From Bacteroidota bacterium (GTDB lineage Bacteria > Bacteroidota > Bacteroidia > Sphingobacteriales > Sphingobacteriaceae), in the NCBI GenBank assembly GCA_013286325.1, contig JABDFZ010000004.1, forward strand, positions 1 to 64,000: a DNA stretch of 64,000 nucleotides, given 5' to 3'. The position numbers were made by a program, and so were the translations under genes. Below, in pieces: positions 3,598 to 29,959 of this stretch. Under the pieces are notes generated by a model, which made no database searches, was not told the DNA's origin, and was given only the letters and a program-made list of their open reading frames with translations. Positions within the stretch are counted from its first letter, which is position 1. Each line of letters starts with the position of its first letter.

Positions 3598-5148
3598 TTG
3601 ATAAAAGAATTAATTATCGATTCATCCCCGAGCGGGACTACTATTGCATTATTACAGGACAAACAGCTTGTAGAGCTTCATAAAGAGCAAATCAGCAACA
3701 ATTATACTGTTGGTGATATTTACCTTGGTCGTATCAAAAAGATAATGCCCGGGTTAAATGCTGCTTTTGTTGATGTAGGCTACGAGAAAGATGCCTTTTT
3801 GCATTATCTTGATCTTGGCCCGCAGGTGCAAAGCCTGCTTAAGCTAACCAAGCAAGTACGTAGCGGGGGATATCAGTCAAAGCTTTTAGATAACTTTAAG
3901 CTGGAAGGCGATATTAATAAAGGGGGTAAGATCTCGGAATTATTATCAAAAAATCAGCTTATACCCGTACAGATAGCTAAGGAGCCAATTTCAACAAAAG
4001 GCCCCCGCTTAAGTTCAGATATATCTATAGCAGGACGATACGTAGTATTAGTGCCGTTTTCGGAGGTTATCTCTATCTCGAAAAAGATAAAGAGCAACAC
4101 CGAACGCAACCGCTTACGCAAAATTGTTGAGAGTATTAAACCAAAGCATTTTGGGGTGATCATCCGTACAGTTTCTGAAGGTAAGGGCGTTACTGAAATG
4201 CAAAAGGACCTGCTTGATTTAATATCAAAGTGGGAATCGTTTATTACGCGTTTACCCGCAATTGAGCCGGCGAAAAAAGCGCTTGGCGAAATTGACCGTA
4301 CATCAACTTTATTGCGCGATATATTAAACCCCGATTTTCAGCATATTTATGTGAATGATAACAGCATGCACGAAGAAGTACGCTCCTATGTTCATGAAAT
4401 ATCACCAGAGTTGGAAAGCATCGTAAAGTTTCATAAGAACAGCGTACCAATATTTGAGCACTATGGCGTTGATAAGCAGATAAAATCAGCTTTCGGCAAA
4501 ACCGTGAATCTCGCAGGCGGCGCCTACCTGGTTATTGAACATACCGAAGCGCTGCATGTTATTGATGTAAACAGCGGAAACCGTACGGCAAATAAGGAGA
4601 ACCAGGAAGAGAACGCCTTCCAGGTAAATAAAGAAGCAGCTAAAGAGATTGCCCGCCAATTACGTTTGCGTGATATGGGAGGGATTGTGGTTATCGACTT
4701 TATCGATATGCACAAACCTAATAACCGCAAAGACCTTTTTGATTATTTAAGGGCCGAAATGGCGCACGACAGGGCTAAGCATACTATTTTACCGCCAAGT
4801 AAATTCGGGCTGGTACAAATAACCCGTCAGCGTGTAAGGCCTGAGATGAACATTGTTACCAACGAAGTTTGCCCAACCTGTAATGGTACTGGTACAATAA
4901 GACCGACAATTTTATTGCTCGATGATATTGAAACCAACTTCAATTATATTTTGGTTGAGCAGAACGAGAAAAGTATTACACTCATTGTTCACCCTTATAT
5001 TGAAGCATACATTAAAAAAGGCTTTATAAACCGCCAGGTAAAATGGTTTTTAAAATACAACCAGTGGATAAAGGTTAAAAGCAACCCGGCTTACCAGATC
5101 ACTGAATTCCATTTTTTCTCAAGCAAAGACGAAGAGATTAAACTGTAG
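3598..5148 (+). CDS. rng: Ribonuclease G/E
   Basis: 516-residue endoribonuclease for rRNA processing and mRNA decay. An S1 RNA-binding domain (GDIYLGRIKKIMPGLNAAFVDVG) lies near residues 38-60. The two catalytic magnesium-binding aspartates sit in HVIDVNSGN and VVIDFIDM. The Zn-link CPTCNGTG is near residue 430. The length suits RNase G or a short RNase E without the scaffold tail. The chosen start is TTG at 3598, because IKELIIDSS is the usual N-terminal strand and no upstream ATG fits. A strong terminator follows. Confidence 0.95.
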   Translation: MIKELIIDSSPSGTTIALLQDKQLVELHKEQISNNYTVGDIYLGRIKKIMPGLNAAFVDVGYEKDAFLHYLDLGPQVQSLLKLTKQVRSGGYQSKLLDNFKLEGDINKGGKISELLSKNQLIPVQIAKEPISTKGPRLSSDISIAGRYVVLVPFSEVISISKKIKSNTERNRLRKIVESIKPKHFGVIIRTVSEGKGVTEMQKDLLDLISKWESFITRLPAIEPAKKALGEIDRTSTLLRDILNPDFQHIYVNDNSMHEEVRSYVHEISPELESIVKFHKNSVPIFEHYGVDKQIKSAFGKTVNLAGGAYLVIEHTEALHVIDVNSGNRTANKENQEENAFQVNKEAAKEIARQLRLRDMGGIVVIDFIDMHKPNNRKDLFDYLRAEMAHDRAKHTILPPSKFGLVQITRQRVRPEMNIVTNEVCPTCNGTGTIRPTILLLDDIETNFNYILVEQNEKSITLIVHPYIEAYIKKGFINRQVKWFLKYNQWIKVKSNPAYQITEFHFFSSKDEEIKL

Positions 5149-5166
5149 ATGTGTTAGTTTACAGAT

Positions 5167-5216
5167 AAAAACAAAAAGAGCAGAAGTTTTATGTAGCATC
5201 TGCTCTTTTTGTTTTT
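5167..5216. terminator. Strong intrinsic terminator after rng
   Basis: An 18-bp perfect stem (AAAAACAAAAAGAGCAGA with its complement) around a 14-base loop, with terminal T-rich arm GTTTTTT. It begins 19 bases after the rng stop. Confidence 0.9.
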
Positions 5217-5335
5217 TAAGATAAGCAGTGAATACATACAAAGTAACAGACAGTATATAATTACTAATTTTTTTAGTAAATTATTGGTAATAGTGCAACT
5301 AAATCCGCACATTTGCATATTAGCATATTTAAAAA

Positions 5336-6775
5336 TTGGCAAAAACAAAGATCGCATACTTCTGTCAGAGCTGTGGGTACGAGTCGGCAAAATGGCTGGG
5401 TAAATGTCCATCATGCTCACAATGGAATACTTTTGTTGAAGAAATTCTGGAAAAGCCGAATACTTCCATACCTAACTGGAAAACAGCCTCCACCACCCAG
5501 CAGCGGGCCAATAAACCTGTACAGGTTGCCGATATTACTTTTACTGATGAAGACAGGCTGCTTACCCCCGATGCAGAATTTAACAGGGTTCTGGGCGGAG
5601 GCATAGTTGCCGGATCATTAGTGTTGATAGGAGGTGAGCCAGGGATTGGGAAATCAACCCTGATGCTGCAACTGGCCTTGAACATGCCAAATTTAAAGGT
5701 GCTTTATGTATCGGGAGAGGAAAGCGAACGGCAGATAAAGATGCGGGCGGAGCGCTTGGTAGAAGTTGGCAGTAAACAGTTGGCAGTTGGCAGTCCGAAA
5801 ATGGATATTGGGAAAGGCTGTTTTATATTAACCGAGACATCAACCCAAAATATATTTAAACAAATAGAGCAACTGGAGCCTGATTTGGTAGTGATCGACT
5901 CTATCCAGACTTTGCATTCTGCACATATTGAATCAACACCGGGGAGCGTTTCGCAGGTTAGGGAGTGCACTGCAGAGATGCTGCGCTTTGCAAAGGAAAG
6001 CTCGACCCCTGTATTTTTGATCGGGCATATTACTAAGGACGGTATGATTGCCGGCCCTAAAATACTGGAACATATGGTGGATACCGTGCTGCAGTTTGAG
6101 GGCGACAGGCACCATGTTTACCGCATATTGCGTACTGTTAAAAACCGTTTCGGATCGTCATCAGAACTCGGTATTTATGAAATGCTTGGCGAGGGACTGC
6201 GGGAAGTATCAAACCCATCCGAAATATTGCTTTCTCAGCGGGATGAACCCTTAAGCGGCATTACCATCTCGGCCACTTTAGAGGGCATGAGGCCTATGTT
6301 GATTGAAACACAGGCGTTGGTGAGTATTTCGGCTTACGGTACACCACAACGCACCGCTACCGGCTTTGATACCCGGCGCATGAGCATGCTGCTGGCTGTA
6401 CTGGAAAAACGCTGTGGGTTTAAGTTAGGGGCTAAAGACGTATTTTTAAATATAACAGGCGGTATAAGGGTGGAAGACCCTGCTATTGACCTGGGTCTTG
6501 CCGCTGCTATTATTTCATCGCATGAGGACATTCCTATATCGTCCAAAACCTGCTTTGCAGGGGAGATTGGTTTATCAGGAGAGATCAGGGCTGTGAACAG
6601 GGTAGAACAGCGTATTGCAGAAGCACAAAAACTGGGCTTTGAACAAATCTTTATCTCTAAATACAACCTTCCATCAGCAGGGCAGGATAAAAAGAAGATG
6701 GACCTGTCGCGTTATAAGATTGATGTAAAACTTGTAAGCAATATCGACGAGGTATTTGGGTTGTTGTTTGGCTAA
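5336..6775 (+). CDS. radA: DNA repair protein RadA
   Basis: 479-residue branch-migration ATPase of recombinational repair. The order is: N-terminal C4 zinc finger (CQSCGYESAKWLGKCPSC), Walker A GGEPGIGKSTL near residue 100, Walker B LVVIDSIQTL, the RadA-specific KNRFGSSSELGIYEM motif, and a C-terminal Lon-protease-like domain (GGIRVEDPAIDLGLAAAI). The start is TTG at 5336, giving MAKTKIAYFCQSCG. It is slightly longer than usual because a short DNA repeat is inserted in frame after MRAERL (VEVGSKQLAVGSPK). That spot is a surface loop just past the P-loop region, so activity is probably kept. Confidence 0.95.
   Translation: MAKTKIAYFCQSCGYESAKWLGKCPSCSQWNTFVEEILEKPNTSIPNWKTASTTQQRANKPVQVADITFTDEDRLLTPDAEFNRVLGGGIVAGSLVLIGGEPGIGKSTLMLQLALNMPNLKVLYVSGEESERQIKMRAERLVEVGSKQLAVGSPKMDIGKGCFILTETSTQNIFKQIEQLEPDLVVIDSIQTLHSAHIESTPGSVSQVRECTAEMLRFAKESSTPVFLIGHITKDGMIAGPKILEHMVDTVLQFEGDRHHVYRILRTVKNRFGSSSELGIYEMLGEGLREVSNPSEILLSQRDEPLSGITISATLEGMRPMLIETQALVSISAYGTPQRTATGFDTRRMSMLLAVLEKRCGFKLGAKDVFLNITGGIRVEDPAIDLGLAAAIISSHEDIPISSKTCFAGEIGLSGEIRAVNRVEQRIAEAQKLGFEQIFISKYNLPSAGQDKKKMDLSRYKIDVKLVSNIDEVFGLLFG
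5765..5794 (+). repeat. GTTGGCAGT repeat inside radA
   Basis: Three copies of GTTGGCAGT occur within 30 bases, the last two overlapping with a 7-base period. The element is in frame and encodes VGSKQLAVGS. It has the look of a low-complexity intergenic repeat rather than radA sequence. Confidence 0.75.
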
Positions 6776-6839
6776 TTATCGCTAAAGAAAAATAACTCAA
6801 CTTTATTTTCAATAATTACTGAAAGTTTAAAAATATAAC

Positions 6840-6847
6840 TATATTTG
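6840..6847 (+). promoter_or_regulatory. TAnnTTTG promoter box before DCC gene
   Basis: TATATTTG matches the Bacteroidota -7 box about 98 bases upstream of the DCC-family ATG. No clear TTTG is seen at -33. Confidence 0.45.
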
Positions 6848-6944
6848 TATCGTAAATACAGAAACGCAAATTTGGCGTGTTCTGCACATCAGCCGTAAAA
6901 CGCTGATTATTTTTTAAACATATATTTCATTAATTACTGAAAAT

Positions 6945-7769
6945 ATGAAAACATTAGAAAATCACATGATATTGTTTGATGGTGAATGCCCTATGTGCAA
7001 AGCGTACACCCAGACATTTGTAAAAACCGGGATGCTGGAAAAGGACGGTAGGGCAGCTTACCAAAACGGTATGGATGCCGCTTGTCCGCTTATTGATAAG
7101 CAAAGAGCCGTTAATGAAATTGCTTTGGTGAACTTAAAAAATGGCGAAGTAACTTATGGCGTAAAAAGCATTTTTAAAATCATTGGCAATGCCTGCCCGG
7201 TATTTGCGCCATTGTTTGGTTTTAAGCCATTTATCTTGCTGATGAGCAAGCTTTATGCATTTATATCATACAACCGCAGGGTAATTATCCCCGCTGGGCA
7301 ACAAGGCGATGGTTTCACCTATCAACCCGAATTTAAAAAACATTATCGCATCGCTTACCTGTTATTCACTTGGTTCTTTACTGGTTATATACTAACTGCA
7401 TACGCGCATTTGTTAAGCCCTGTTGTACCCGCAGGTAATGCTTACCGCGAGTATATGATTTGTGGCGGCCAGATCATTTTTCAAGGCGCTATTATCAGCC
7501 TGTTTGCTAAAGGGAAACTATGGAACTATCTCGGTAATATGATGACCATTTCTTTCGGTGGCAGTCTATTACTTTTATTGCCTCTGGCGTTTAATCACTG
7601 GTTTTACCTGCAGCCTTTATTTTTCATTCTGTATTTTATAGCTGTTGCCGGGCTGATGTTTTTAGAGCATATCCGCAGAACAAAATTATTGCAACTGGGC
7701 TGGACGATGACCATAACCTGGGCATTATACAGAGTAATATTGCTGGTGTTGATATTGAAGTTTAGTTAA
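6945..7769 (+). CDS. DCC-family (DUF393) thiol-oxidoreductase-like membrane protein
   Basis: 274 residues. The N-terminus has the family signature LFDGECPMC (DxxCxxC), related to thioredoxin-fold redox proteins. The C-terminal half (from about residue 125) carries several hydrophobic helices, so the redox-like domain is joined to a membrane domain. The substrate is unknown. The next gene, a TIGR01777-type epimerase, follows after 20 bases, and the two probably form an operon. Confidence 0.8.
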   Translation: MKTLENHMILFDGECPMCKAYTQTFVKTGMLEKDGRAAYQNGMDAACPLIDKQRAVNEIALVNLKNGEVTYGVKSIFKIIGNACPVFAPLFGFKPFILLMSKLYAFISYNRRVIIPAGQQGDGFTYQPEFKKHYRIAYLLFTWFFTGYILTAYAHLLSPVVPAGNAYREYMICGGQIIFQGAIISLFAKGKLWNYLGNMMTISFGGSLLLLLPLAFNHWFYLQPLFFILYFIAVAGLMFLEHIRRTKLLQLGWTMTITWALYRVILLVLILKFS

Positions 7770-7789
7770 TTACAGGATCCCAAAAACTA

Positions 7790-8722
7790 ATGAACCAAGA
7801 CATGAAATATAAAAAAATAGTTCTTGCTGGTGGTAATGGTTACCTCGGCAACGTGCTGGCTAACTATTATAAAGATAAGACCGAAGAGATTGTGATATTA
7901 AGCAGGCGTGAAAAACAGACTGAACATAATATTAGGACGGTGACCTGGGATGGCAAAACCCGCGGCAAATGGACTGCGGAACTGGTGAATGCCGATATGC
8001 TGATAAACCTTTCCGGTAAAAATGTAAACTGCCGCTATACTGATAAAAACAAAGCGGAGATCATTGTATCAAGGGTATTGCCAACAGAATTATTAGGCAT
8101 AGTGATACAGGATCTGTATGAGCCGCCAAAGCTTTGGATCAACATAACATCAGCAACCATATACAGGCATGCAGAAGACCGTCCGCAGGATGAAGAAACG
8201 GGTGAAATTGGAAGCGGATTTTCTATAGATGTTTGCAATGCCTGGGAAACTGCTTTTAATAAATACGAAACTCCCAAAACTCGGAAAGTTACTTTACGAA
8301 TGGGCATTGTGCTTGGCAGGGAGGGTAGCGTTTTTCCGCGGTTACTTAACCTGGTAAAAATGGGAATAGGCGGAATGCAAGGCAATGGAGAACAATATGT
8401 ATCATGGGTGCATGAGCACGATGCAGCCCGCAGCACCGAGTGGTTTGCAGATAACCCGGAACTACAGGGTATATTTAATTGTACTGCTCCTATCCCCATA
8501 AAAAATGCGGAATTGATGCACATTATCCGCAAAGCTTATGGCACACCTATTGGCTTACCTGCACCTGAATGGCTACTGGAAATGGGTGCCATAATGATAG
8601 GTACCGAAACAGAATTGATATTAAAAAGCCGCTGGGTACTGCCAAAACGTTTGCTGGATAGTGGGTTTGAGTTCCGTTACAGGAATGCTGAAGATGCGGT
8701 GAAGGAAATACTTAAAAGATAA
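7790..8722 (+). CDS. TIGR01777-family NAD(P)-dependent epimerase/oxidoreductase
   Basis: 310-residue atypical short-chain dehydrogenase (SDR39U1 type). A Rossmann motif GGNGYLG lies near residue 15. LINLSGKNVNCRYT and the NITSATIYRHAED segment follow. The C-terminal DUF1731 region reads LPAPEWLLEMGAIMIGTETELILKSRWVLPKRLLDSGFEFRY, shown here only by its pattern PxWLLxxGxxxxxxxxELxLxSRxVLPKRLL. The substrate is not known for the family. Start at 7790, or at the second Met (7802), which would leave MKYKKIVLAGG. Confidence 0.85.
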   Translation: MNQDMKYKKIVLAGGNGYLGNVLANYYKDKTEEIVILSRREKQTEHNIRTVTWDGKTRGKWTAELVNADMLINLSGKNVNCRYTDKNKAEIIVSRVLPTELLGIVIQDLYEPPKLWINITSATIYRHAEDRPQDEETGEIGSGFSIDVCNAWETAFNKYETPKTRKVTLRMGIVLGREGSVFPRLLNLVKMGIGGMQGNGEQYVSWVHEHDAARSTEWFADNPELQGIFNCTAPIPIKNAELMHIIRKAYGTPIGLPAPEWLLEMGAIMIGTETELILKSRWVLPKRLLDSGFEFRYRNAEDAVKEILKR

Positions 8723-8859
8723 CTTCATTTGCATAAGAAAGCGGAAACAATCCTTAAGTGTCAGGAATATATTAAGTATCGTTAGCTGTAAATTTTTATT
8801 GTTTGTGTAAATTATATACTTTTATGCAGACTTTATCTATTTAAACAAAGGCAGCGGTG

Positions 8860-10245
8860 ATGGGTGATAAATTGAAGGAGATAGCTGATCTTAAGGAGAA
8901 ACTTGCTCAAGCAAAAAACCGGTATGATGCATTGGTTGAGCATGCTGCAGATGGTATATACATACTGGATCCTGATTACCGTTTCACCGAAGTAAATACT
9001 GGTATGTGCCTGATGCTGGGCTACACCCGCGAACAACTGCTAGGCAGGAAAATTAATGAGTTTCTTGATCCCGAACAGCTAAAGACCAACCCCATTGAAA
9101 CTGCTGCAACAGCTATGCATCAGGCAGTAGTAAAAGAGAGAAGATATATCAAAAAAGACGGATCGGTGCTTGATGTTGAAATAAATATCAGGATGTATGC
9201 CGATGAACGGTCGCTGGTTATTGCACGGGATATAAGCGCCCGGAAAAAGATGGAGGCCGAGCTACGGTTAGCGGAATTAAAATTCAGGACTATTGCCGAG
9301 CGCTCTATGGTGGGCATCTATATTGTACAGGATAGTCAATTGGTATATGTTAATCCCAGGTTTGCCGCGATTTTTGGATATCAACCCAAAGAAATGATCG
9401 ATACCCTTATAGCTATTGACTTGTTTCATGATGATTATAAGGAAATGGTTAAGGAGTGGGTACGATCCCGGCTGGAGGGAGAAATAGAAAGCGTACAATA
9501 TGAGGCTATGTGCCTGCGTAAAGATGGCAGCCTTATATGGGCCGAGTTTTATGGAAACAGGACGCTCATAGGGAATGTGCCGAGCATAATCGGCTCGATG
9601 ATTGACATTACCGACCGTAAAAAAGGAGAAGAGATATTACGGATGGCGGAAGCTAACTGGCAAACTATTTTAAATACAACTGATACTGCCTATGTTCTAT
9701 TTGATATCGACTTTAGAGCACTGGCCTTTAACCAAACAGCAGCTGCATTTATAAACACCTATCATCACCATGACCCGAAAGTGGGAGATGAGTTAATGAA
9801 TTATTTACCAAAGGAAAGGTATGCCCGTTTTAAAGAAATAGCTAAAAAAGCATTAGCAGGCGAGAGTACAAGCTATGAAACAAATTATCTCCATGTTAAT
9901 GGGAATGTTTTTTACTTTATCGTACGGTTGTTTCCGCTAACGGATACCCATGGAAAAATATTGGGCATGGTACTCGCTTTGGACGATATAACTGAGAGAA
10001 AAAATGATGAATACCGGCTTAGAGATGCTTACGACCGCATACAAACCCAACTTAGCCTGATAAAAGACGTAGCCTGGAAGCAATCGCACCTGATACGCAG
10101 TCCCCTGGCCAATTTAATAGGATTAGTGAGCCTATTGCAGGATGATCCCAATGAAGCCGGTGTTTTGGAACATATAAAAACAGAACTGGGCAGACTTGAC
10201 CGTATTATTATTGATATGGCTGGAGATGCAGCCATATCTACATAA
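8860..10245 (+). CDS. Multi-PAS sensor protein with HisKA-like end, no ATPase domain
   Basis: 461 residues with no membrane segment. A short coiled coil (LKEIADLKEKLAQAKNRYDAL) leads into three PAS/PAC domains, at about residues 25-140, 145-260 and 265-385. Each PAS is followed by a typical linker (ISARKKMEAEL, ITDRKKGEEIL, ITERKNDEYRL). The tail holds a histidine-kinase-like phosphoacceptor helix, WKQSHLIRSPLANLIGLVSLL, but the protein stops about 45 residues later with no HATPase domain. It may be a dimerising sensor, a phosphoacceptor used in trans, or a truncated kinase. The ATG at 8860 is preferred over the in-frame GTG at 8857. Confidence 0.8.
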   Translation: MGDKLKEIADLKEKLAQAKNRYDALVEHAADGIYILDPDYRFTEVNTGMCLMLGYTREQLLGRKINEFLDPEQLKTNPIETAATAMHQAVVKERRYIKKDGSVLDVEINIRMYADERSLVIARDISARKKMEAELRLAELKFRTIAERSMVGIYIVQDSQLVYVNPRFAAIFGYQPKEMIDTLIAIDLFHDDYKEMVKEWVRSRLEGEIESVQYEAMCLRKDGSLIWAEFYGNRTLIGNVPSIIGSMIDITDRKKGEEILRMAEANWQTILNTTDTAYVLFDIDFRALAFNQTAAAFINTYHHHDPKVGDELMNYLPKERYARFKEIAKKALAGESTSYETNYLHVNGNVFYFIVRLFPLTDTHGKILGMVLALDDITERKNDEYRLRDAYDRIQTQLSLIKDVAWKQSHLIRSPLANLIGLVSLLQDDPNEAGVLEHIKTELGRLDRIIIDMAGDAAIST

Positions 10246-10312
10246 TTTCATCATGCTAAATTAGGGTAAACACAGTACGCCAGCTAACAGCACAGAATGG
10301 TTTTAGAGCTTA

Positions 10313-11533
10313 TTAAAGTGTGACATTATCACAAGCTATTATCTGTACTGGTTCTGATTCTTTTGCCTCCGAGATATTTTTTTCTATCGATTCTTGTCTC
10401 CTGGTTAGTGTAATAAAGCTCATTCCAAGCGCGAGTAAGAGCAGTGGTACAGTCATCCATATCACCTCGTGGATGCCGTAATGGGCAATAACGAAACCTC
10501 CTAACAAGGTGCCAAGGGTAATCCCTGCATTAAAAAATGATGGCAGCAGGCTATTCACAAAGTCGAGAGCTGTATCGTGTATGCCGTTAATAATATGAAG
10601 GTTGGCTACCAAAAAACCGCCGGTATGTATAAAACCCCATACCGAAAGAATGGCCACCATTGGGTAAAACACGCCTCCGAATTTATAAGCCAGCAAATGC
10701 ATAATAACCAGTGCCAGCAAAAACACCCGGCTGGTTATCGGTATATTCTTGCTGAGCGCAATACCAGTGACCCAATTGCCTAATATGCCTGTGCCGCCAA
10801 AAACCAGCAGCATTACGCTTATTTGCGCACCGCTCATATGCGAAACTTTATTCATGTATTCGGCCAGGTAGCCATAGGTGGCAAACATGCCGGCCAGTAT
10901 TATGGTGGATGTTAATAGTTTGATCCATAACTGCAAGCTGCCCAATATTTTTACCTCGCTTTTAGGACTTGCCTGTTTTTCGTCGACCGGCATTGAGGGT
11001 ACAAAAAGTGCCAGCGCGCCAAAGGCTAGCAGGTTTATTAAGGCCGAGAGTATGAAAGATGCCCTCCAGTTAAACAGATCCGCCATATAGGTAATCAACG
11101 GTACGCCCAATACAGTGGCTATACTGAGACCTGCCATTACAATAGCAATGGCTTTTGGCGCATCTTTTGGGCCTGCCTGTTTTGAGGCAGTTGTCATGGA
11201 TACGGCCCAAAATACCGGGTGTAAAAACGCCGGTAAAATGCGGGCTATCATAAGCATAGTAAAGCTGGTAGCTGCTGCCGAAAGCAGGTTGGATATAACA
11301 AATATAGCCAGCACCATACACATAATGGTTTTGCGGTTCACCCTTGCGGTAAGCATATTGGTAAAGGGGCCTGCCACTGCTACGGTTAAGGCAAAGCCAC
11401 TTAACAGCCAGCCGGCAATATCAACTGAGACATGAAATTCCTTCACCAATGCCGGCAGGATCCCGATAACTCCAAACTCGGTTGTTATGATGCCAAATGC
11501 TCCGAGAGCCATAATATAGATAGACTTTTTCAT
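10313..11533 (-). CDS. MFS transporter, DHA1-type drug/sugar exporter
   Basis: 406 residues with about 12 membrane helices. The start IYIMALGAFGIITTEFGVIGILPAL and the segment VAVAGPFTNMLTARVNRKTIM, which sits where MFS motif A is expected, place it in the DHA1 group with YdhP/AraJ/NepI-like exporters. It lies downstream of the ArsR-family regulator on the same strand, 75 bases away, with its own palindrome in the gap. The pair looks like a regulator-controlled efflux unit; the substrate is unknown. Confidence 0.85.
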   Translation of the reverse strand: MKKSIYIMALGAFGIITTEFGVIGILPALVKEFHVSVDIAGWLLSGFALTVAVAGPFTNMLTARVNRKTIMCMVLAIFVISNLLSAAATSFTMLMIARILPAFLHPVFWAVSMTTASKQAGPKDAPKAIAIVMAGLSIATVLGVPLITYMADLFNWRASFILSALINLLAFGALALFVPSMPVDEKQASPKSEVKILGSLQLWIKLLTSTIILAGMFATYGYLAEYMNKVSHMSGAQISVMLLVFGGTGILGNWVTGIALSKNIPITSRVFLLALVIMHLLAYKFGGVFYPMVAILSVWGFIHTGGFLVANLHIINGIHDTALDFVNSLLPSFFNAGITLGTLLGGFVIAHYGIHEVIWMTVPLLLLALGMSFITLTRRQESIEKNISEAKESEPVQIIACDNVTL

Positions 11534-11542
11534 AGGTATTTA

Positions 11543-11570
11543 ATATTCAAATATTTAAATGTTTCAATAT
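11543..11570 (-). promoter_or_regulatory. Operator-like palindrome before MFS gene
   Basis: The two 14-base halves, ATATTCAAATATTT and AAATGTTTCAATAT, match as inverted repeats at 12 of 14 positions. It lies 10 bases upstream of the MFS ATG. The nine-base core AAATGTTTC recurs upstream of the ArsR gene (11963-11971), supporting one binding protein for both sites. Confidence 0.6.
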
Positions 11571-11608
11571 ATACAAGCAAAACAATGCTTCTCTTTTCTA
11601 AAAAGGAA

Positions 11609-11887
11609 CTAATCTTTTAATGTGTTCAAACTGGAAATATACTCGTCAAGTACTTGGTGGTTGAGTACATATTTAAGGTTGCGGCCTTCTTTTTGTGGCA
11701 ACAGCAATTCTGCATCAACCAATTGTTTCAGGTGATGCGAAATAGAAGGCTGTGTTAAATCGAGCAGGTCATTTACCTCTGCGCAATAGAGGCAGTCTTT
11801 CTTTTTTTTAAACTGTTGTAAAATAGCTATCCGGCTGGCATCGCTCAGCGCGCGGGATATTTTTTCTATTTTTTTGTTGTCCATCAT
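11609..11887 (-). CDS. ArsR/SmtB-family transcriptional regulator
   Basis: 92-residue winged-helix repressor. The recognition region LLDLTQPSISHHLKQLVDAELLLPQKEG aligns with the SQPKISRHL helix of ArsR. A CLYC pair precedes it, close to but not exactly on the ELCVCD metal site of ArsR, so metal or thiol sensing is possible but unproven. It probably represses itself and the downstream MFS exporter through the two AAATGTTTC sites. Confidence 0.88.
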   Translation of the reverse strand: MMDNKKIEKISRALSDASRIAILQQFKKKKDCLYCAEVNDLLDLTQPSISHHLKQLVDAELLLPQKEGRNLKYVLNHQVLDEYISSLNTLKD

Positions 11888-11931
11888 TCCAAAATCATCA
11901 CAATACTCAGGTCATGAGTTTTTTGTCAGGA

Positions 11932-11975
11932 CAAATATATGCACTAAAATATTAATACATCGAAATGTTTCTATT
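11932..11975 (-). promoter_or_regulatory. Promoter and operator of the ArsR-MFS unit
   Basis: On the minus strand TATATTTG (11939-11932) fits the -7 box. The -33 region falls on ACAT-CGAA-ATGT and the AAATGTTTC core shared with the MFS upstream site. A repressor bound here would cover the -33 region. Confidence 0.5.
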
Positions 11976-12078
11976 TGTTATGTAAAATAATAGAAATACA
12001 CCGCCAAAGCTTTAAAAAATGTTCGAATATTAACCGCTCAATTTCACACTTAAATGATATTTTTCGGGTTAAATTCCC

Positions 12079-12086
12079 TATTTTTG
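12079..12086 (+). promoter_or_regulatory. -7 box of the ileS operon
   Basis: TATTTTTG matches TAnnTTTG, with a T-rich stretch about 20 bases upstream. The predicted start near 12093 favours the ATG at 12118 over the TTG at 12100. Confidence 0.5.
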
Positions 12087-12117
12087 CAGCCTCTAAAATT
12101 TGAGGTGTAATTTACTG

Positions 12118-15100
12118 ATGTACAAAGAATATAAGCAATTAAACTTATCGCAGACAGGCAAGGATGTACTTGATTTCTGGAAGCAGAACAACATCTTTGA
12201 AAAAAGCATCAGCAGTCGCCCGGCCACAAACCCATATACGTTTTATGAGGGGCCGCCGTCTGCCAATGGTATGCCCGGCATTCACCATGTGATGGCGCGT
12301 GCCATAAAAGATATTTTTTGCCGTTACAAAACTTTAAAAGGTTACCAGGTAAAACGCAAAGGCGGCTGGGATACTCACGGCTTGCCTATTGAGCTGGCTG
12401 TTGAAAAAGCTTTAGGCATAACCAAAGACGATATTGGCAAAAAGATTTCGGTTAAGGATTATAACGATGCCTGCCGCAAAGAGGTAATGCGCTATACTGA
12501 TATCTGGAACGACCTTACCGAAAAAATGGGTTATTGGGTCGATCTGGAAAATCCGTATATCACCTACAAAAACGAATATATTGAGTCGCTTTGGTGGATA
12601 CTGAAGCAACTTTACGATAAGGACCTTTTATATAAAGGTTATACCGTACAACCTTATTCGCCAAAATCAGGTACGGGTTTGAGCTCGCATGAGCTTAATC
12701 AGCCGGGCACCTATAAAATGGTGAAGGATACGAGTATTACTGCCCAGTTTAAAGTTAAAAGAGATCAGGATTCGGAATTTTTATTTGAAAATATCAATAC
12801 CAGCCTTTACATATTAGCATGGACAACTACTCCATGGACGCTTCCTGCAAACTGTGCCCTGGCAGTTGGCGAGAAGATTGACTATGTAAAGATCAGCACT
12901 TTTAACCCTTATACTTATGAGCCGGTTACAGTAATACTGGCAAAAGACCTGGTGGGCAAGCATTTTAAAGCCGAAGGTGAGAATGCTTCGTTTGCTGACT
13001 ATAAGGGTGGAGACAAAATTATCCCCTGGCAATTAAAAGGTACTTATAAAGGCGTTGAGTTAGTAGGCTTGCATTATGAGCAATTAATGCCTTATGTAAC
13101 CAATGCCGACCTTGAAAAGAATGCATTCCGTGTTATACCTGCCGATTTTGTTACTACTGATGACGGTACCGGTATAGTACACACCGCTTCTGTTTTTGGC
13201 GCGGATGACTTCAGGGCCTGTAAAGAACAGGGCGTGCCATCGGTAATGGTGAAGGATGAATTTGGTAAGGATGTGCCTTTGGTAAATAAGCAGGGCCGTT
13301 TTGTTGATGAGGTAACCGATTTTGCAGGCCGTTACGTTAAGGAAGAATATTACAGCAAAGAAGAACGCGAAGTAGCTGATTTTAAGCCGACCGATGTATT
13401 GATATCGATAAAGCTTAAAACGGAGAACAAAGCCTTCGACGTAAAAAAATACGAACATAGCTACCCGCACTCGTGGCGGAGCGATGAGCCCATTTTATAT
13501 TACCCGCTCGATAGCTGGTTTATCCGTACCACCGCAGTAAAAGATAAACTGGTTGAGTTGAATAAAACGATCAACTGGAAACCGGAATCGACCGGGACAG
13601 GCCGTTTTGGCAACTGGCTGGAAAATTTGGTTGACTGGAACCTTTCGCGCTCGCGCTACTGGGGAACTCCGCTGCCAATATGGAGAGCGAATTGGGCTGA
13701 AGTCGGAAAAGATAAAATCGATTTATGTATCGGCAGTACTGAAGAATTGTTAAATGTTGGAGATGGATTTGAATCCCGTTATTTTCATTTAGAAAAAATC
13801 AGCGAAGATATTAAAAATCACACCGAAGATTTCTTTAATAAATACAATTCTTTTTTCGGTAACAATGACACATGGTCTTTTGGCGGTGATGCTGATAAGG
13901 CAGAGATTCCAGAGCAGATTTCGATTGAAGATTCTTTTAGACAGCAAATTATAACTGCTGCTGTAGCGAATAGATTTACGTTATTCGAGTTGCAAATGGT
14001 GCTCGGAAATATGTATCATTCGCAGACATTTGAAAAATTCGTTGATAAGTACTCTGATAAACTTGAAGAGTATTATTCAAACAATGAAGTTGACCTTCAT
14101 CGACCGTACGTTGATAATATCGTCATAATTAAACGTAAAGACGCTGATAGTCGGATTTTTTATTTCCGAGAGCCCGACCTGATTGACGTTTGGTTTGATA
14201 GCGGCGCCATGCCTTATGCACAGTGGCATTTTCCGTTCGAAAATAAGGAAGAATTTGAAAATGCGTATCCTGCCGATTTCATAGCCGAAGGCGTTGACCA
14301 AACCCGTGGCTGGTTCTTTACCCTGCATGCCATAGCAGTAATGCTTAGTGAAGTAAGCGATGAGGTAAAGGAGATAAATACTAAAGTTGGTAATAAAGGT
14401 GTAGCGTTTAAAAACGTAATATCGAATGGTTTGGTGCTGGATAAAAACGGCAACAAAATGTCGAAACGGCTCGGTAACGGGGTTGACCCTTTTGCTACCA
14501 TTGAGCAGTTTGGCGCTGATGCCGCCCGCTGGTATATGATAAGCAATGCCGCGCCATGGGATAATCTTAAATTTAATGTTGAGGGGATTGATGAGGTAAG
14601 GCGTAAATTCTTTGGTACGCTGTATAATACCTATACCTTTTTTGTGATGTATGCCAACATTGATAAGTTTACTTACAGTGAGGCAGAGATAGCTTTAAAG
14701 GACAGGCCGGAAATTGATCAGTGGATTATATCGTTACTAAATACTTTGAGTAAAGAGGTTGACGGTTTTTATGCCGACTTTGAACCTACCAAAGCTGCCC
14801 GCGCCATACAGGATTTTGTGGATGCGCATTTAAGCAACTGGTATGTAAGGTTAAGCCGCCGCCGTTTCTGGAAATCTGATAATTCGGATGATAAGCTGTC
14901 AGCTTATCAAACTTTATACACCTGTTTGATAAGTATTGCCAAGCTAATGTCGCCAATTGCGCCATTCTTTGCAGAACGTTTATATACCGATTTAAACAGT
15001 ATCACTAAAAAAGAACCATTTGAATCTGTCCACCTGGCCTATTTCCCGGAATATCATAACGAACTGGTAAACGCCAAACTGGAAGAACGGATGCAAATGG

Positions 15101-26555: not shown

Positions 26556-26556
26556 C

Positions 26557-26589
26557 TGAAAGCTAAAAGTCGAAAGCTTTCATTTTTTT
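26557..26589 (+). terminator. Intrinsic terminator after feoB
   Basis: TGAAAGCT (26557-26564) pairs with AGCTTTCA (26575-26582) around a 10-base loop, followed by seven T residues. It begins right after the feoB stop. Confidence 0.8.
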
Positions 26590-26772
26590 GAGTTCTAAAA
26601 TAAAACCATCCAATATTTTTCTTAGAAGTTAAACGCGTTAAAAAAAGTGCTTTTTTTGAGTGGTTTACGCATAAAAAGTAAATAAACACGTTGTTTTATT
26701 CACAAATTATTCTGTAGATTTAAAAGCGGTTAATCTGCGATTAATATAAAACCTTAAAACAATACCTATTCT

Positions 26773-27045
26773 ATGTTTCTTTTTCTCCGGACTCACAACT
26801 TAAAAACAGTAAATAGATCAATAAAAATTTTCCCTGTAATTATTAACGCTAAAACTATTTGCACCCCGGCTAAGGTTTATTCAATGCTATTAAACGAAGA
26901 AGATTTTATTAAACAGGACAATCAAAGAGATGGATATAAAATAACAGGGGTAACCGCTATACCAGCTATGCCGCCAAACGGCTACCACCTGTCTGACTTA
27001 TACCAGCAACCCGGTTTTAAATACATGCTTGCCTTAAGCGTATAA
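26773..27045 (+). CDS. Hypothetical 90-aa protein, doubtful
   Basis: No family recognised. The N-terminus (MFLFLRTHNLKTVNRSIKIF) is basic and moderately hydrophobic but not a clean signal peptide. The second half (LNEEDFIKQDNQRDGYKITGV, PPNGYHLSDLYQQPGF) looks like real protein. It precedes the GG-leader peptide gene by 101 bases on the same strand. It could be a small accessory protein of that patch or a chance ORF in an otherwise empty stretch (26590-27146). Confidence 0.35.
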   Translation: MFLFLRTHNLKTVNRSIKIFPVIINAKTICTPAKVYSMLLNEEDFIKQDNQRDGYKITGVTAIPAMPPNGYHLSDLYQQPGFKYMLALSV

Positions 27046-27048
27046 AGA

Positions 27049-27062
27049 TACTTTGCAAAGTA
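27049..27062. promoter_or_regulatory. Perfect 14-bp palindrome upstream of GG-leader peptide
   Basis: TACTTTGCAAAGTA is fully self-complementary. A related half-site, GGCAAAGTTAC, lies at 27114-27124, nearer the peptide ATG. A possible operator. Confidence 0.45.
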
Positions 27063-27146
27063 AAGGAGCATACACTTTAACAATATATGCCGTTTTGAAG
27101 CCGGGGCGTGTCTGGCAAAGTTACTTAATAAATAAAACTAATTGTT

Positions 27147-27374
27147 ATGAAAAAGTTTAACCAGCTTAGCAGAGCTGAAATGAAAAATGTTTCGGGTGGT
27201 AATTTAAAAGCTTGTACGCTTACGTGTCACGTAATGAGGTCTCCGCCGACCCCTGAATTTCCAGATGGAACATATACTAATGTTACTACTGTTGTACCAG
27301 ATTGTACCGATGCGACAGAATCAATGTACTGTTTACGTGATCAAGTTCTATCATGTAGTTGCTCTACTATGTAA
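27147..27374 (+). CDS. Double-glycine leader peptide precursor, Cys-rich
   Basis: 75 residues. The leader MKKFNQLSRAEMKNVSGG has the LSxxEMKxVxGG form of Bacteroidota GG-type (bacteriocin-like) leaders, which C39 peptidase-transporters cut after GG. The core of 57 residues, from NLKACTLTC, has six cysteines (two early, two in the middle, SCSCS at the end), an even number that allows three disulfides. No C39 transporter, lanthipeptide synthase or radical SAM enzyme lies in the window. The product may be a secreted peptide exported by a system elsewhere. Downstream is a hairpin and the MG2/plug gene. Confidence 0.8.
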   Translation: MKKFNQLSRAEMKNVSGGNLKACTLTCHVMRSPPTPEFPDGTYTNVTTVVPDCTDATESMYCLRDQVLSCSCSTM

Positions 27375-27388
27375 ATATATTAGAGTGC

Positions 27389-27424
27389 ATTACTTAAGTT
27401 GGGCAACAGTCTAACTTAAGTAAT
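27389..27424 (+). terminator. Hairpin between peptide gene and MG2/plug gene
   Basis: ATTACTTAAGTT and AACTTAAGTAAT form a perfect 12-bp stem with a 12-base loop. No T-tract follows at once (TACTCCG). It could be a leaky terminator or an RNA-stabilising 3' stem for the peptide message. Confidence 0.6.
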
Positions 27425-27465
27425 TACTCCGATCAATATTATCTCAATTACTATATTTTTTTTGA

Positions 27466-29898
27466 ATGAAGAGGACAATTTTAGGGCTAATGATGGTTGT
27501 ATTGTTAACGGGTTTGGCCGAACCATCGGCTTATGCACAAACCATTAACGAGAGTGTGAAAAATATTACCACTAAGTTAAACAGTTATACTGCCGCCTAC
27601 TCTACCGAAAAAGTTTACCTTCAATTCGATAAACCCTATTATGCAGCAGGCGATACCATTTATTTTAAGGCGTATGTTACACTTAGCACACAGCACAAAC
27701 TCTCAGCCTTAAGCGGGGTAGTAAACATTGATTTAATAAACCCGGCAAACAAGATCAGCCGGTCCATAAAATTGCCGGTTATAGCGGGTGTAGCCTGGGG
27801 CGACTTTGCATTGGCAGATACGCTAAAAGGCGGCAGCTACAGGATAAGGGCCTATACTAACTGGATGCGCAATGAAGGCGAAAACTCATTTTTTGAACAT
27901 ATTATACCTGTAGGGACTACAACGACTCAAAGTATCCCCGAAAACGGGGAACGCAGTAATAAAACAATAGTAAAAACCACCTCAAAAAAGCCGGATGTGC
28001 AGTTTTTGCCGGAAGGCGGAAGTTTAGTAATTGGCAACTATTCAAAAATTGCCTTTAAAGCAGTAAATCCCGATGGCCAGGGAACAGATATAAAAGGTAC
28101 AGTTACCGATGATATCGGAACAGAAGTCTGCACATTTGCTTCAACCCACCTGGGCATGGGGGCATTTAACCTGGTACCGCAGGCAGGTAAAATCTATAAA
28201 GCCAATATTACTTATGCAGACGGAACGACTAATACAACAGAACTGCCAAAGGCTGCTAATACAGGCTATACCATCAATTTAAATAATACCAATCCAGATA
28301 CCATCAGGTTACGGATCTCGGCAGGAAGCGAAAGTACTCTTGATAAATTAACCCTTGTTGCCCAATCAGGCGGGATCATTTACTATGCAGCAGAAAGCAC
28401 ATCAGGGAATAAATTCTTTACGGCAGTAATACCAAAAAACAAATTCCCAACGGGAATAGCCCAGTTCACGCTGTTTAATGAAAAAGGCGAGCCGCTAAAC
28501 GAACGCCTGGTGTTTATTAATAATAACGATGAGCTAAAGCTAACCGTTCAGTCAAGGGGCAGCTATGCAACAAGACAAAAGGTAAAGTTAGAACTTTATG
28601 CAAAAGATAAAAATGCTAAACCGGTAACTGGGAGCTTTTCGATAGCGGTAGTTGACGAAACAAAAGTGCCGATAGATGAACAAAACGAAAATACCATACT
28701 TTCAGACCTGTTGCTAACCTCAGACCTAAGAGGGAATATAGAAAGCCCCAATTATTATTTTACCAATATCACTGATAAAACCAATGCTGACCTTGACCTG
28801 CTGATGCTTACACAGGGTTACCGCAGGTTTGAATGGAAACAAATACTGAATAACACTGACCAGGCAATGCTATATCAGCCTGAAAAGTCATTGACCATAT
28901 CTGGTAAAATAACAAAAAACGGTAAGCCGGTGCCTAACGGGAAGATAACACTGTTTACCACCTCCGGTGGAGCTTTTTTGTTAGATACATTATCAGATGC
29001 AAACGGCAGGTTCGTTTTCCGGGACTTGCAGTTTGGTGACAGTACAAAGTTTGTAGTACAATCGAAGGTAACAAAAGGCCAGGATAATATAGTGCTTGAG
29101 CTTGACACAATAATGCCGCCTACAGTGACCGCCGGAAACTTGGGTATAGGCAAGACAGCAGTCAGCTCAACGGATATGGCTACTTATTTGCAAAACCAGG
29201 AACAACTCTTCAGAGAACAACTTAAATACGGCATTAATAAGAATTCATTAGTATTAAAGGAAGTAATAATAAAAGGGCAAAAGGAGAAAATTATACCACA
29301 TTCACAAAACCTGAACGGAGCAGGGAATGCAGATATAGTTTTTACAGAAAAAGATATAGATAAAATGATCGGCGGCAATCTGGAAGCCGCTTTGCGTGGT
29401 GCAACACACCTGCGGTTTAGAAATGGAGCTCCAGAAGGTATGGCAATAGTGGTAGATGGCACCTTTGTCGACGCTGACGTCTTTGATACTTTACATCCGG
29501 ATGATATCGAGGGTATAGAAATAATAACTGGTCCGCACTACGGCGCCATATATGGTTCGAGGATGGCGGGTGGTGGTATAATTATAACAACCAGAAAAGC
29601 CCGCAAAGCAAATAATTACTACCGCTATGCACCCGGTGTTGTAACCTATATGCCAAAAGGCTATTACAAAGCGCGTGAGTTTTACTCACCACAATACGAT
29701 AATCCAAAAACCAATCAGAAAATGGCCGACCTGCGCAGTACCATTTACTGGCAACCTAATATAATAACAGATAAAGACGGCAAAGCATCCATTGAATATT
29801 TTAATGCTGATGGCAAAGGGACATACCGCGTAGTAATAGAAGGCATTGATACCGATGGTAATTTAGGCAGACAGGTGTACAGGTATAAGGTGGAATAA
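27466..29898 (+). CDS. MG2-like/TonB-plug surface protein
   Basis: 810 residues with a signal peptide (LLTGLAEPSAYAQ). The N-terminal part has an alpha-2-macroglobulin MG2-like strand set (EKVYLQFDKPYYAAGDTIYFKAYV), followed by further beta-sandwich domains. A TonB-receptor plug-like domain lies at about 635-730 (GNLEAALRGATHLRF, GMAIVVDGTFVD, DDIEGIEIITGPHYGAIYGSRMAGGGIIITT). There is no beta-barrel; the protein ends with another macroglobulin-like piece (DGKASIEYFNADGKGTYRVVIEGI). The family is common in Sphingobacteriaceae and function is unclear. It may handle or bind the adjacent leader peptide, which is only inference from position. Confidence 0.8.
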   Translation: MKRTILGLMMVVLLTGLAEPSAYAQTINESVKNITTKLNSYTAAYSTEKVYLQFDKPYYAAGDTIYFKAYVTLSTQHKLSALSGVVNIDLINPANKISRSIKLPVIAGVAWGDFALADTLKGGSYRIRAYTNWMRNEGENSFFEHIIPVGTTTTQSIPENGERSNKTIVKTTSKKPDVQFLPEGGSLVIGNYSKIAFKAVNPDGQGTDIKGTVTDDIGTEVCTFASTHLGMGAFNLVPQAGKIYKANITYADGTTNTTELPKAANTGYTINLNNTNPDTIRLRISAGSESTLDKLTLVAQSGGIIYYAAESTSGNKFFTAVIPKNKFPTGIAQFTLFNEKGEPLNERLVFINNNDELKLTVQSRGSYATRQKVKLELYAKDKNAKPVTGSFSIAVVDETKVPIDEQNENTILSDLLLTSDLRGNIESPNYYFTNITDKTNADLDLLMLTQGYRRFEWKQILNNTDQAMLYQPEKSLTISGKITKNGKPVPNGKITLFTTSGGAFLLDTLSDANGRFVFRDLQFGDSTKFVVQSKVTKGQDNIVLELDTIMPPTVTAGNLGIGKTAVSSTDMATYLQNQEQLFREQLKYGINKNSLVLKEVIIKGQKEKIIPHSQNLNGAGNADIVFTEKDIDKMIGGNLEAALRGATHLRFRNGAPEGMAIVVDGTFVDADVFDTLHPDDIEGIEIITGPHYGAIYGSRMAGGGIIITTRKARKANNYYRYAPGVVTYMPKGYYKAREFYSPQYDNPKTNQKMADLRSTIYWQPNIITDKDGKASIEYFNADGKGTYRVVIEGIDTDGNLGRQVYRYKVE

Positions 29899-29934
29899 AA
29901 CCTTTCGCCTTTTGCCTTTCAGCTTTTACCTTTT
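29899..29934 (+). repeat. Low-complexity CCTTTCGCCTTTTGCCTTTC repeat
   Basis: Degenerate tandem units CCTTTcgCCTTTtgCCTTTcagCTTTTacCTTTT lie right after the MG2/plug stop. Such pyrimidine repeats are typical non-coding filler in these genomes. Confidence 0.5.
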
Positions 29935-29937
29935 TAC

Positions 29938-29945
29938 TATCTTTG
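29938..29945 (+). promoter_or_regulatory. -7 box of the SprT-like gene
   Basis: TATCTTTG fits TAnnTTTG and predicts a start near 29951, only about 10 bases before the TTG start codon at 29960. Confidence 0.5.
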
Positions 29946-29959
29946 CGACGAGGTAAAAA

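What the first reader, a model, noticed from the sequence alone, without database searches (positions are those of the whole stretch)
27147..29898. GG-leader Cys-rich peptide, hairpin, and MG2/TonB-plug protein
The 75-aa precursor ends its leader in VSGG and has six cysteines in the core. A perfect 12-bp hairpin separates it from a large secreted protein with macroglobulin and plug-like domains. A precursor followed by a leaky stem and a large surface protein is the layout expected if the peptide is made in excess and then handled at the surface. No export ABC protein is in view.
Basis: partly seen in the sequence, partly recalled or inferred. Interest (0 to 1): 0.65.

Follow-up and report, generated by a model that had tools for sequence, protein, structure and literature searches.

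The report
Exported cysteine-rich peptide with RNA leader
This soil bacterium (Mucilaginibacter) carries a gene for a small exported cysteine-rich peptide next to a large surface protein; both are a displaced piece of a recognisable peptide-export gene cluster, and the peptide genes of this genus share a conserved folded RNA leader that matched no family in Rfam.

Summary
A 75-aa GG-leader precursor with six core cysteines (27147-27374), a perfect 12-bp hairpin (27389-27424) and an 810-aa secreted MG2/plug protein (27466-29898) are all present. The genome (a 61%-complete Mucilaginibacter MAG) has C39 exporters elsewhere. The pairing is real: in other Mucilaginibacter and one Pedobacter, a GG peptide directly precedes an MG2/plug gene at seven further loci, and the closest relatives (56-67% identical) often sit inside clusters of C39-like/VKOR/thioredoxin oxidase, GG peptides, thioredoxin-like or MG2/plug partners, C39-ABC and HlyD. 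The window locus is a displaced, partly decayed piece of such a cluster: the last ~60 codons of a VKOR gene survive just upstream, the pair sits between feoB and sprT (neighbours in most relatives), and an ABC-HlyD-MG2 remainder lies on another contig. Stem-loops recur after these peptide genes (65% versus 22% of control gaps). Beyond the finding, an ~86-nt conserved, covarying, pseudoknotted RNA leader (window 27042-27127) precedes most of these peptide genes; it has no Rfam match and occurs in 22 of 301 family genomes, six copies in this one. What the peptide does, and whether this copy is active, is not shown.

The parts
26866..27045 (+). C-terminal remnant (~60 codons) of a C39-like/VKOR/thioredoxin disulfide-oxidase gene; the catalytic part is lost
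   Evidence: tblastn of the translated stretch to VKOR genes of export clusters, 55% identity, E 3e-15; alignment to seven VKOR C-termini
27042..27127 (+). Conserved structured 5' RNA leader: palindrome 27049-27062, stem P2 27068-27072/27086-27090, pseudoknot 27091-27094/27105-27108, stem P3 27100-27103/27113-27116
   Evidence: Alignment A5; covariation; model R1 match 69.8 bits; later matches; no Rfam match
27147..27374 (+). 75-aa precursor: 18-aa GG leader (27147-27200) and 57-aa core with Cys pattern C-x3-C ... C ... C ... C-x-C
27389..27424 (+). 12-bp perfect stem-loop between peptide and partner gene
   Evidence: z -6.7; recurrent after GG-peptide genes; single copy in the genome
27466..29898 (+). 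810-aa exported MG2 / CarboxypepD_reg / SusC-type plug protein without a barrel; predicted macroglobulin-like domain chain

Best explanation
The locus is a displaced piece of a Mucilaginibacter export cluster for disulfide-rich GG-leader peptides. The precursor is transcribed behind a conserved pseudoknotted 5' RNA leader and followed by a stem-loop that probably favours peptide mRNA over read-through into the partner gene. A C39-ABC/HlyD exporter encoded elsewhere in the genome would cut after VSGG and export the 57-aa core. In complete clusters a membrane oxidase, made of a C39-like domain without the catalytic Cys plus VKOR plus a thioredoxin domain, would oxidise the cysteines; here only its last ~60 codons remain, so oxidation would have to come from another source. 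The downstream MG2/plug protein occupies the slot usually held by a thioredoxin-like protein and most likely binds or handles the peptide in the periplasm or at the outer membrane. Shown: gene content, pairing, decay, displacement, stem-loop enrichment, RNA covariation. Inferred: cleavage, export, oxidation, regulation, partner function, and that this copy is still active.
For: GG-leader paralogues and C39 ABC genes in the same genome. VKOR remnant directly upstream. Clusters VKOR - GG peptide - thioredoxin-like or MG2/plug - C39-ABC - HlyD in relatives. Closest MG2/plug relatives (56-67%) lie in such clusters in several genomes: G004, G048, G111, G152, and G160 (VKOR only); others of similar identity do not. 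M. phenanthrenivorans BJC16-A38 keeps VKOR - peptide with a similar core (leader out of frame in that assembly) - stem-loop - MG2/plug (58%) - GG - ABC - HlyD. Seven further direct GG to MG2/plug pairs among 229 MG2 gene entries; 6 of 73 loci versus 0.04 expected under an assumed density of 10 peptides per 5 Mb. Own contig C25 holds ABC (cut by contig end) - HlyD - MG2/plug, the order seen at the 3' end of relatives' clusters. feoB and sprT are neighbours without this pair in most relatives. Stem-loops of 9 bp or more after 65% of GG genes versus 22% of controls, P 3e-8. C39-like domain of VKOR proteins lacks the D-C-G catalytic motif.
Against: MG2/plug proteins are a large family, mostly not near GG peptides (7 pairs in 229 gene entries), including 904-907-aa copies beside a 178-aa ORF of the size of the dCTP-deaminase-like genes scanned in L204 and L210. 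Most GG peptides have another partner or none. VKOR is a remnant here and no intact VKOR gene was found in this 61%-complete genome, so the local copy may be non-functional. The core resembles only a few other peptides. The peptide model has low confidence (pLDDT 62).
Confidence: 0.66

Rival explanations
1. Bacteriocin and immunity or resistance pair: the core is an antibacterial peptide, and the downstream protein (MG2/plug here, thioredoxin-like elsewhere) protects the producer or is a decoy receptor.
For: Conserved leaders with variable cores, several peptides per genome, some decayed copies; peptide-then-partner gene order; plug domain related to SusC receptors.
Against: Partners are large enzyme-like or macroglobulin-like proteins rather than small variable immunity proteins; some peptides have no partner or another GG peptide next. 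No activity data.
Confidence: 0.2
2. Dead remnant: the pair is a decaying fragment left after a cluster was broken up, and the peptide is not exported or oxidised today.
For: VKOR gene reduced to its C-terminal end; exporter not local; no VKOR found in the genome; several related peptides are frameshifted or lack a start codon.
Against: Peptide and MG2/plug frames are intact; stem-loop and RNA leader are intact; exporters present elsewhere. The genome is only 61% complete.
Confidence: 0.2
3. Chance neighbourhood: the MG2/plug gene is an ordinary envelope gene that happens to follow a GG peptide.
For: The family is large and usually not linked to GG peptides.
Against: Seven further direct pairs, and placement inside VKOR/C39 clusters far above expectation; several of the closest relatives lie in clusters.
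Confidence: 0.06
4. The conserved 86-nt element is not an RNA regulator but a single-strand DNA or recombination site that marks the edge of shuffling peptide cassettes.
For: It sits at the 5' edge of peptide modules whose downstream partners differ; its 5' end is palindromic with a variable centre.
Against: The end of the element lies about 20 nt before the start codon in the window and at a similar spacing elsewhere; two covarying stems plus a pseudoknot; no recombinase noted beside it.
Confidence: 0.15

Closest known systems
NCBIfam TIGR04149 (GG_sam_targ_CFB) and NF047798 (leader_Chryseo) precursor families
   Same: Same type of Bacteroidota leader ending in GG
   Different: Scores below both cut-offs; the clusters seen here carry VKOR and thioredoxin-like genes; the genome's rSAM-like/C39 locus is separate
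Bacteroidota graspetide loci (PMC8939145)
   Same: GG precursors with C39-ABC, HlyD-type protein and TonB-receptor-related proteins
   Different: Cores here are Cys-rich; an MvdD pre-ATP-grasp hit was seen only beside the Cys-free 59-aa GG peptide of L141; a similar gene order recurs in L168, which was not scanned
VKOR/DsbA-type disulfide oxidases
   Same: VKOR domain and thioredoxin-type domain with CxxC
   Different: Carries an N-terminal C39-like domain without the catalytic Cys; the one VKOR phylogeny paper checked (PMC4555120) mentions no such fusion; other literature was not read
Bacterial alpha-2-macroglobulin and SusC/RagA plug
   Same: MG-type domains in the predicted fold, and a plug domain
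   Different: No thioester motif in the sequence and no beta-barrel; plug placed near the C-terminus
Known structured RNAs in Rfam 15
   Same: Conserved, covarying 5' leader, riboswitch-like in architecture
   Different: No family matched in the stretches searched

Membership tests
GG-leader peptide exported by a C39 ABC transporter | Leader ending in GG after a short amphipathic motif | tested here: met
   LSRAEMKNVSGG
GG-leader peptide exported by a C39 ABC transporter | C39-ABC exporter available | tested here: met
   In the genome, not in the window; a related ABC with HlyD beside MG2/plug on C25, its N-terminal part cut off by the contig end
GG-leader peptide exported by a C39 ABC transporter | Cleavage at GG and secretion | not testable with these tools
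   needs mass spectrometry
TIGR04149 / NF047798 | Score above curated cut-off | tested here: not met
   20 vs 25 and 19.6 vs 23.5 bits
Bacteriocin | Antibacterial activity and an immunity function | not testable with these tools
   no assay
Alpha-2-macroglobulin | MG-type domain chain | tested here: met
   Pfam MG2; predicted fold matches A2M and complement proteins, low TM-scores
Alpha-2-macroglobulin | Thioester (CxEQ-type) domain | tested here: not met
   Absent from the 810-aa sequence by reading
TonB-dependent receptor SusC/RagA | Plug domain | tested here: met
   Family profile matches SusC chains at 2e-12; Pfam just under cut-off
TonB-dependent receptor SusC/RagA | 22-strand barrel | tested here: not met
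   About 100 aa follow the plug, predicted as a small beta domain
Rfam RNA family | Match to a curated covariance model | tested here: not met

The most novel reading that the evidence does not exclude
The 5' element is a new pseudoknotted cis-regulatory RNA that governs a dispersed set of exported cysteine-rich peptides in Mucilaginibacter, and MG2/plug proteins are dedicated partners of some of these peptides.
Probability: 0.5. Interest if true: 0.76.

Novelty: new variant of a known kind. Interest (0 to 1): 0.6.

Why it matters
If right, a whole class of disulfide-rich secreted peptides in common soil Bacteroidota shares one export route, a C39-like/VKOR oxidase and one folded RNA leader. 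That gives direct handles for testing what these peptides do, what ligand or condition the RNA senses, and why a barrel-less plug fused to macroglobulin domains travels with them.

Tried and rejected
Adjacency test with a loose regular expression for GG leaders gave mostly false hits; replaced by a leader HMM. The peptide alone as query finds few relatives (6 of 100 genomes), because cores are variable. Dispersed-repeat origin of the hairpin: rejected, single copy in the genome (the pattern scan missed even the known copy, so it is not used). Rho-independent terminator with T-run: not found. Rfam families: none. Alternative AAAGU/ACUUU pairing in the RNA leader: looked nearly invariant by eye on the alignment, so it was not pursued or counted. 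Single-sequence folding of the window leader is not significant (z -0.31), so the RNA claim rests on covariation only. Peptide structure prediction: low confidence, not used. Literature searches found no paper on the VKOR/C39 fusion or on MG2/plug proteins, and none on these clusters was noticed in the hits; only three papers were opened, for term searches.

Full report
Observation. The peptide has an 18-aa leader ending in VSGG and a 57-aa core with six cysteines. The stem-loop is strongly non-random. The 810-aa protein carries MG2, a CarboxypepD_reg-like stretch and a SusC-type plug and ends in a predicted beta domain instead of a barrel. The predicted fold resembles the macroglobulin-domain chains of A2M and complement proteins, with low global TM-scores.

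Where it comes from. The genome is a MAG, 61% complete. It has other GG-leader cysteine-rich peptides and C39 ABC genes.

The export clusters. Around C39-ABC genes of relatives the recurring order is an oxidase (C39-like domain, VKOR, thioredoxin domain), one or more GG peptides each often followed by a thioredoxin-like protein or an MG2/plug protein, then C39-ABC and HlyD. The C39-like domain of the oxidase lacks the D-C-G motif of the active peptidase while the ABC proteins keep it. The closest relatives of the window's MG2/plug protein, 56-67% identical, lie in such clusters in several genomes; others of 57-63% identity do not. In 73 loci from named genomes, 4 of the 8 best and 6 of 65 others have cluster genes within 10 kb. 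A GG peptide directly precedes an MG2/plug gene at seven further loci.

The window locus is a broken-off piece. The short ORF upstream of the peptide is the C-terminal end of a VKOR-type gene. In M. phenanthrenivorans the same order survives whole, with a core of similar cysteine pattern whose leader is out of frame in that assembly, followed by a stem-loop and the MG2/plug gene. On contig C25 of the own genome an ABC gene cut by the contig end is followed by HlyD and an MG2/plug gene. In most relatives feoB and sprT are neighbours with other or no genes between them, so this interval takes insertions.

The stem-loop. Across fetched loci, perfect stems of 9 bp or more occur in the first 80 nt after 65% of 46 GG genes and after 22% of 474 other same-strand gaps (P 3e-8). 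Many are not followed by T-runs. This fits a processing or partial-termination role; no expression data were available.

The RNA leader. Aligning sequences upstream of GG start codons showed a conserved element. On 33 copies, two stems and a pseudoknot are formed in 94.1% of cells, with two-sided changes in 7 of 14 pairs and 0 of 500 shuffles reaching the covariation score; RNAalifold predicts the two nested stems independently. The structure was derived from these same sequences, and related sequences are counted separately, so the shuffle counts are not probabilities. A model built from it was searched in 301 family genomes: 22 have it, 21 of them Mucilaginibacter, and the own genome has six copies, each lying just before a GG peptide place found (one interrupted by a stop). 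A check on 24 aligned matches gave 94.0% of cells paired, though several of those rows repeat or overlap sequences in the building alignment, so it is only partly independent. Of 25 copies inspected, 21 precede an intact GG ORF, three a degraded one and one none. No Rfam family matched.

Mechanism. The best-supported reading is export and cleavage by C39-ABC/HlyD, oxidation by the VKOR protein in complete clusters, and binding or handling by the partner. The first two follow from established roles of those families; the partner's role is inference from position and domain content. Whether this displaced copy still works is open.

Noticed in passing
window 26556-29959 and loci L325-L348: The feoB-sprT interval holds different inserted ORFs (242 to 378 aa) in several relatives and none in others: an insertion hotspot.
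   Followed up: partly
L040 (own genome C12) 4701-14764: Three radical-SAM-like ORFs (by sequence look) around a C39-ABC gene: a separate peptide-maturation locus.
   Followed up: no
L038 (own genome C107) 6423-12142: Four consecutive ~290-aa ORFs with similar N-termini upstream of a C39-ABC gene.
   Followed up: no
L204, L210, L231, L238, L240, L250: A 178-aa ORF beside MG2/plug genes; a dCTP-deaminase-like domain was found in the two scanned (L204, L210), suggesting a second, conserved setting for this family.
   Followed up: partly
L350, L351, L352, L208: RNA leader present while the GG peptide is frameshifted or has lost its start codon: rapid turnover of peptide genes.
   Followed up: partly
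L256 8438-8752: Gap between GG peptide and MG2 gene contains a fragment that reads like the C-terminus of another MG2/plug protein.
   Followed up: no
L141, L168: Cys-free GG peptide (59 aa) followed by ORFs of 329 and 344 aa (L141) or 321 and 344 aa (L168) and then C39-ABC and HlyD; the 329-aa ORF of L141 has an MvdD pre-ATP-grasp domain, so these look like graspetide loci; L168 was not scanned.
   Followed up: partly
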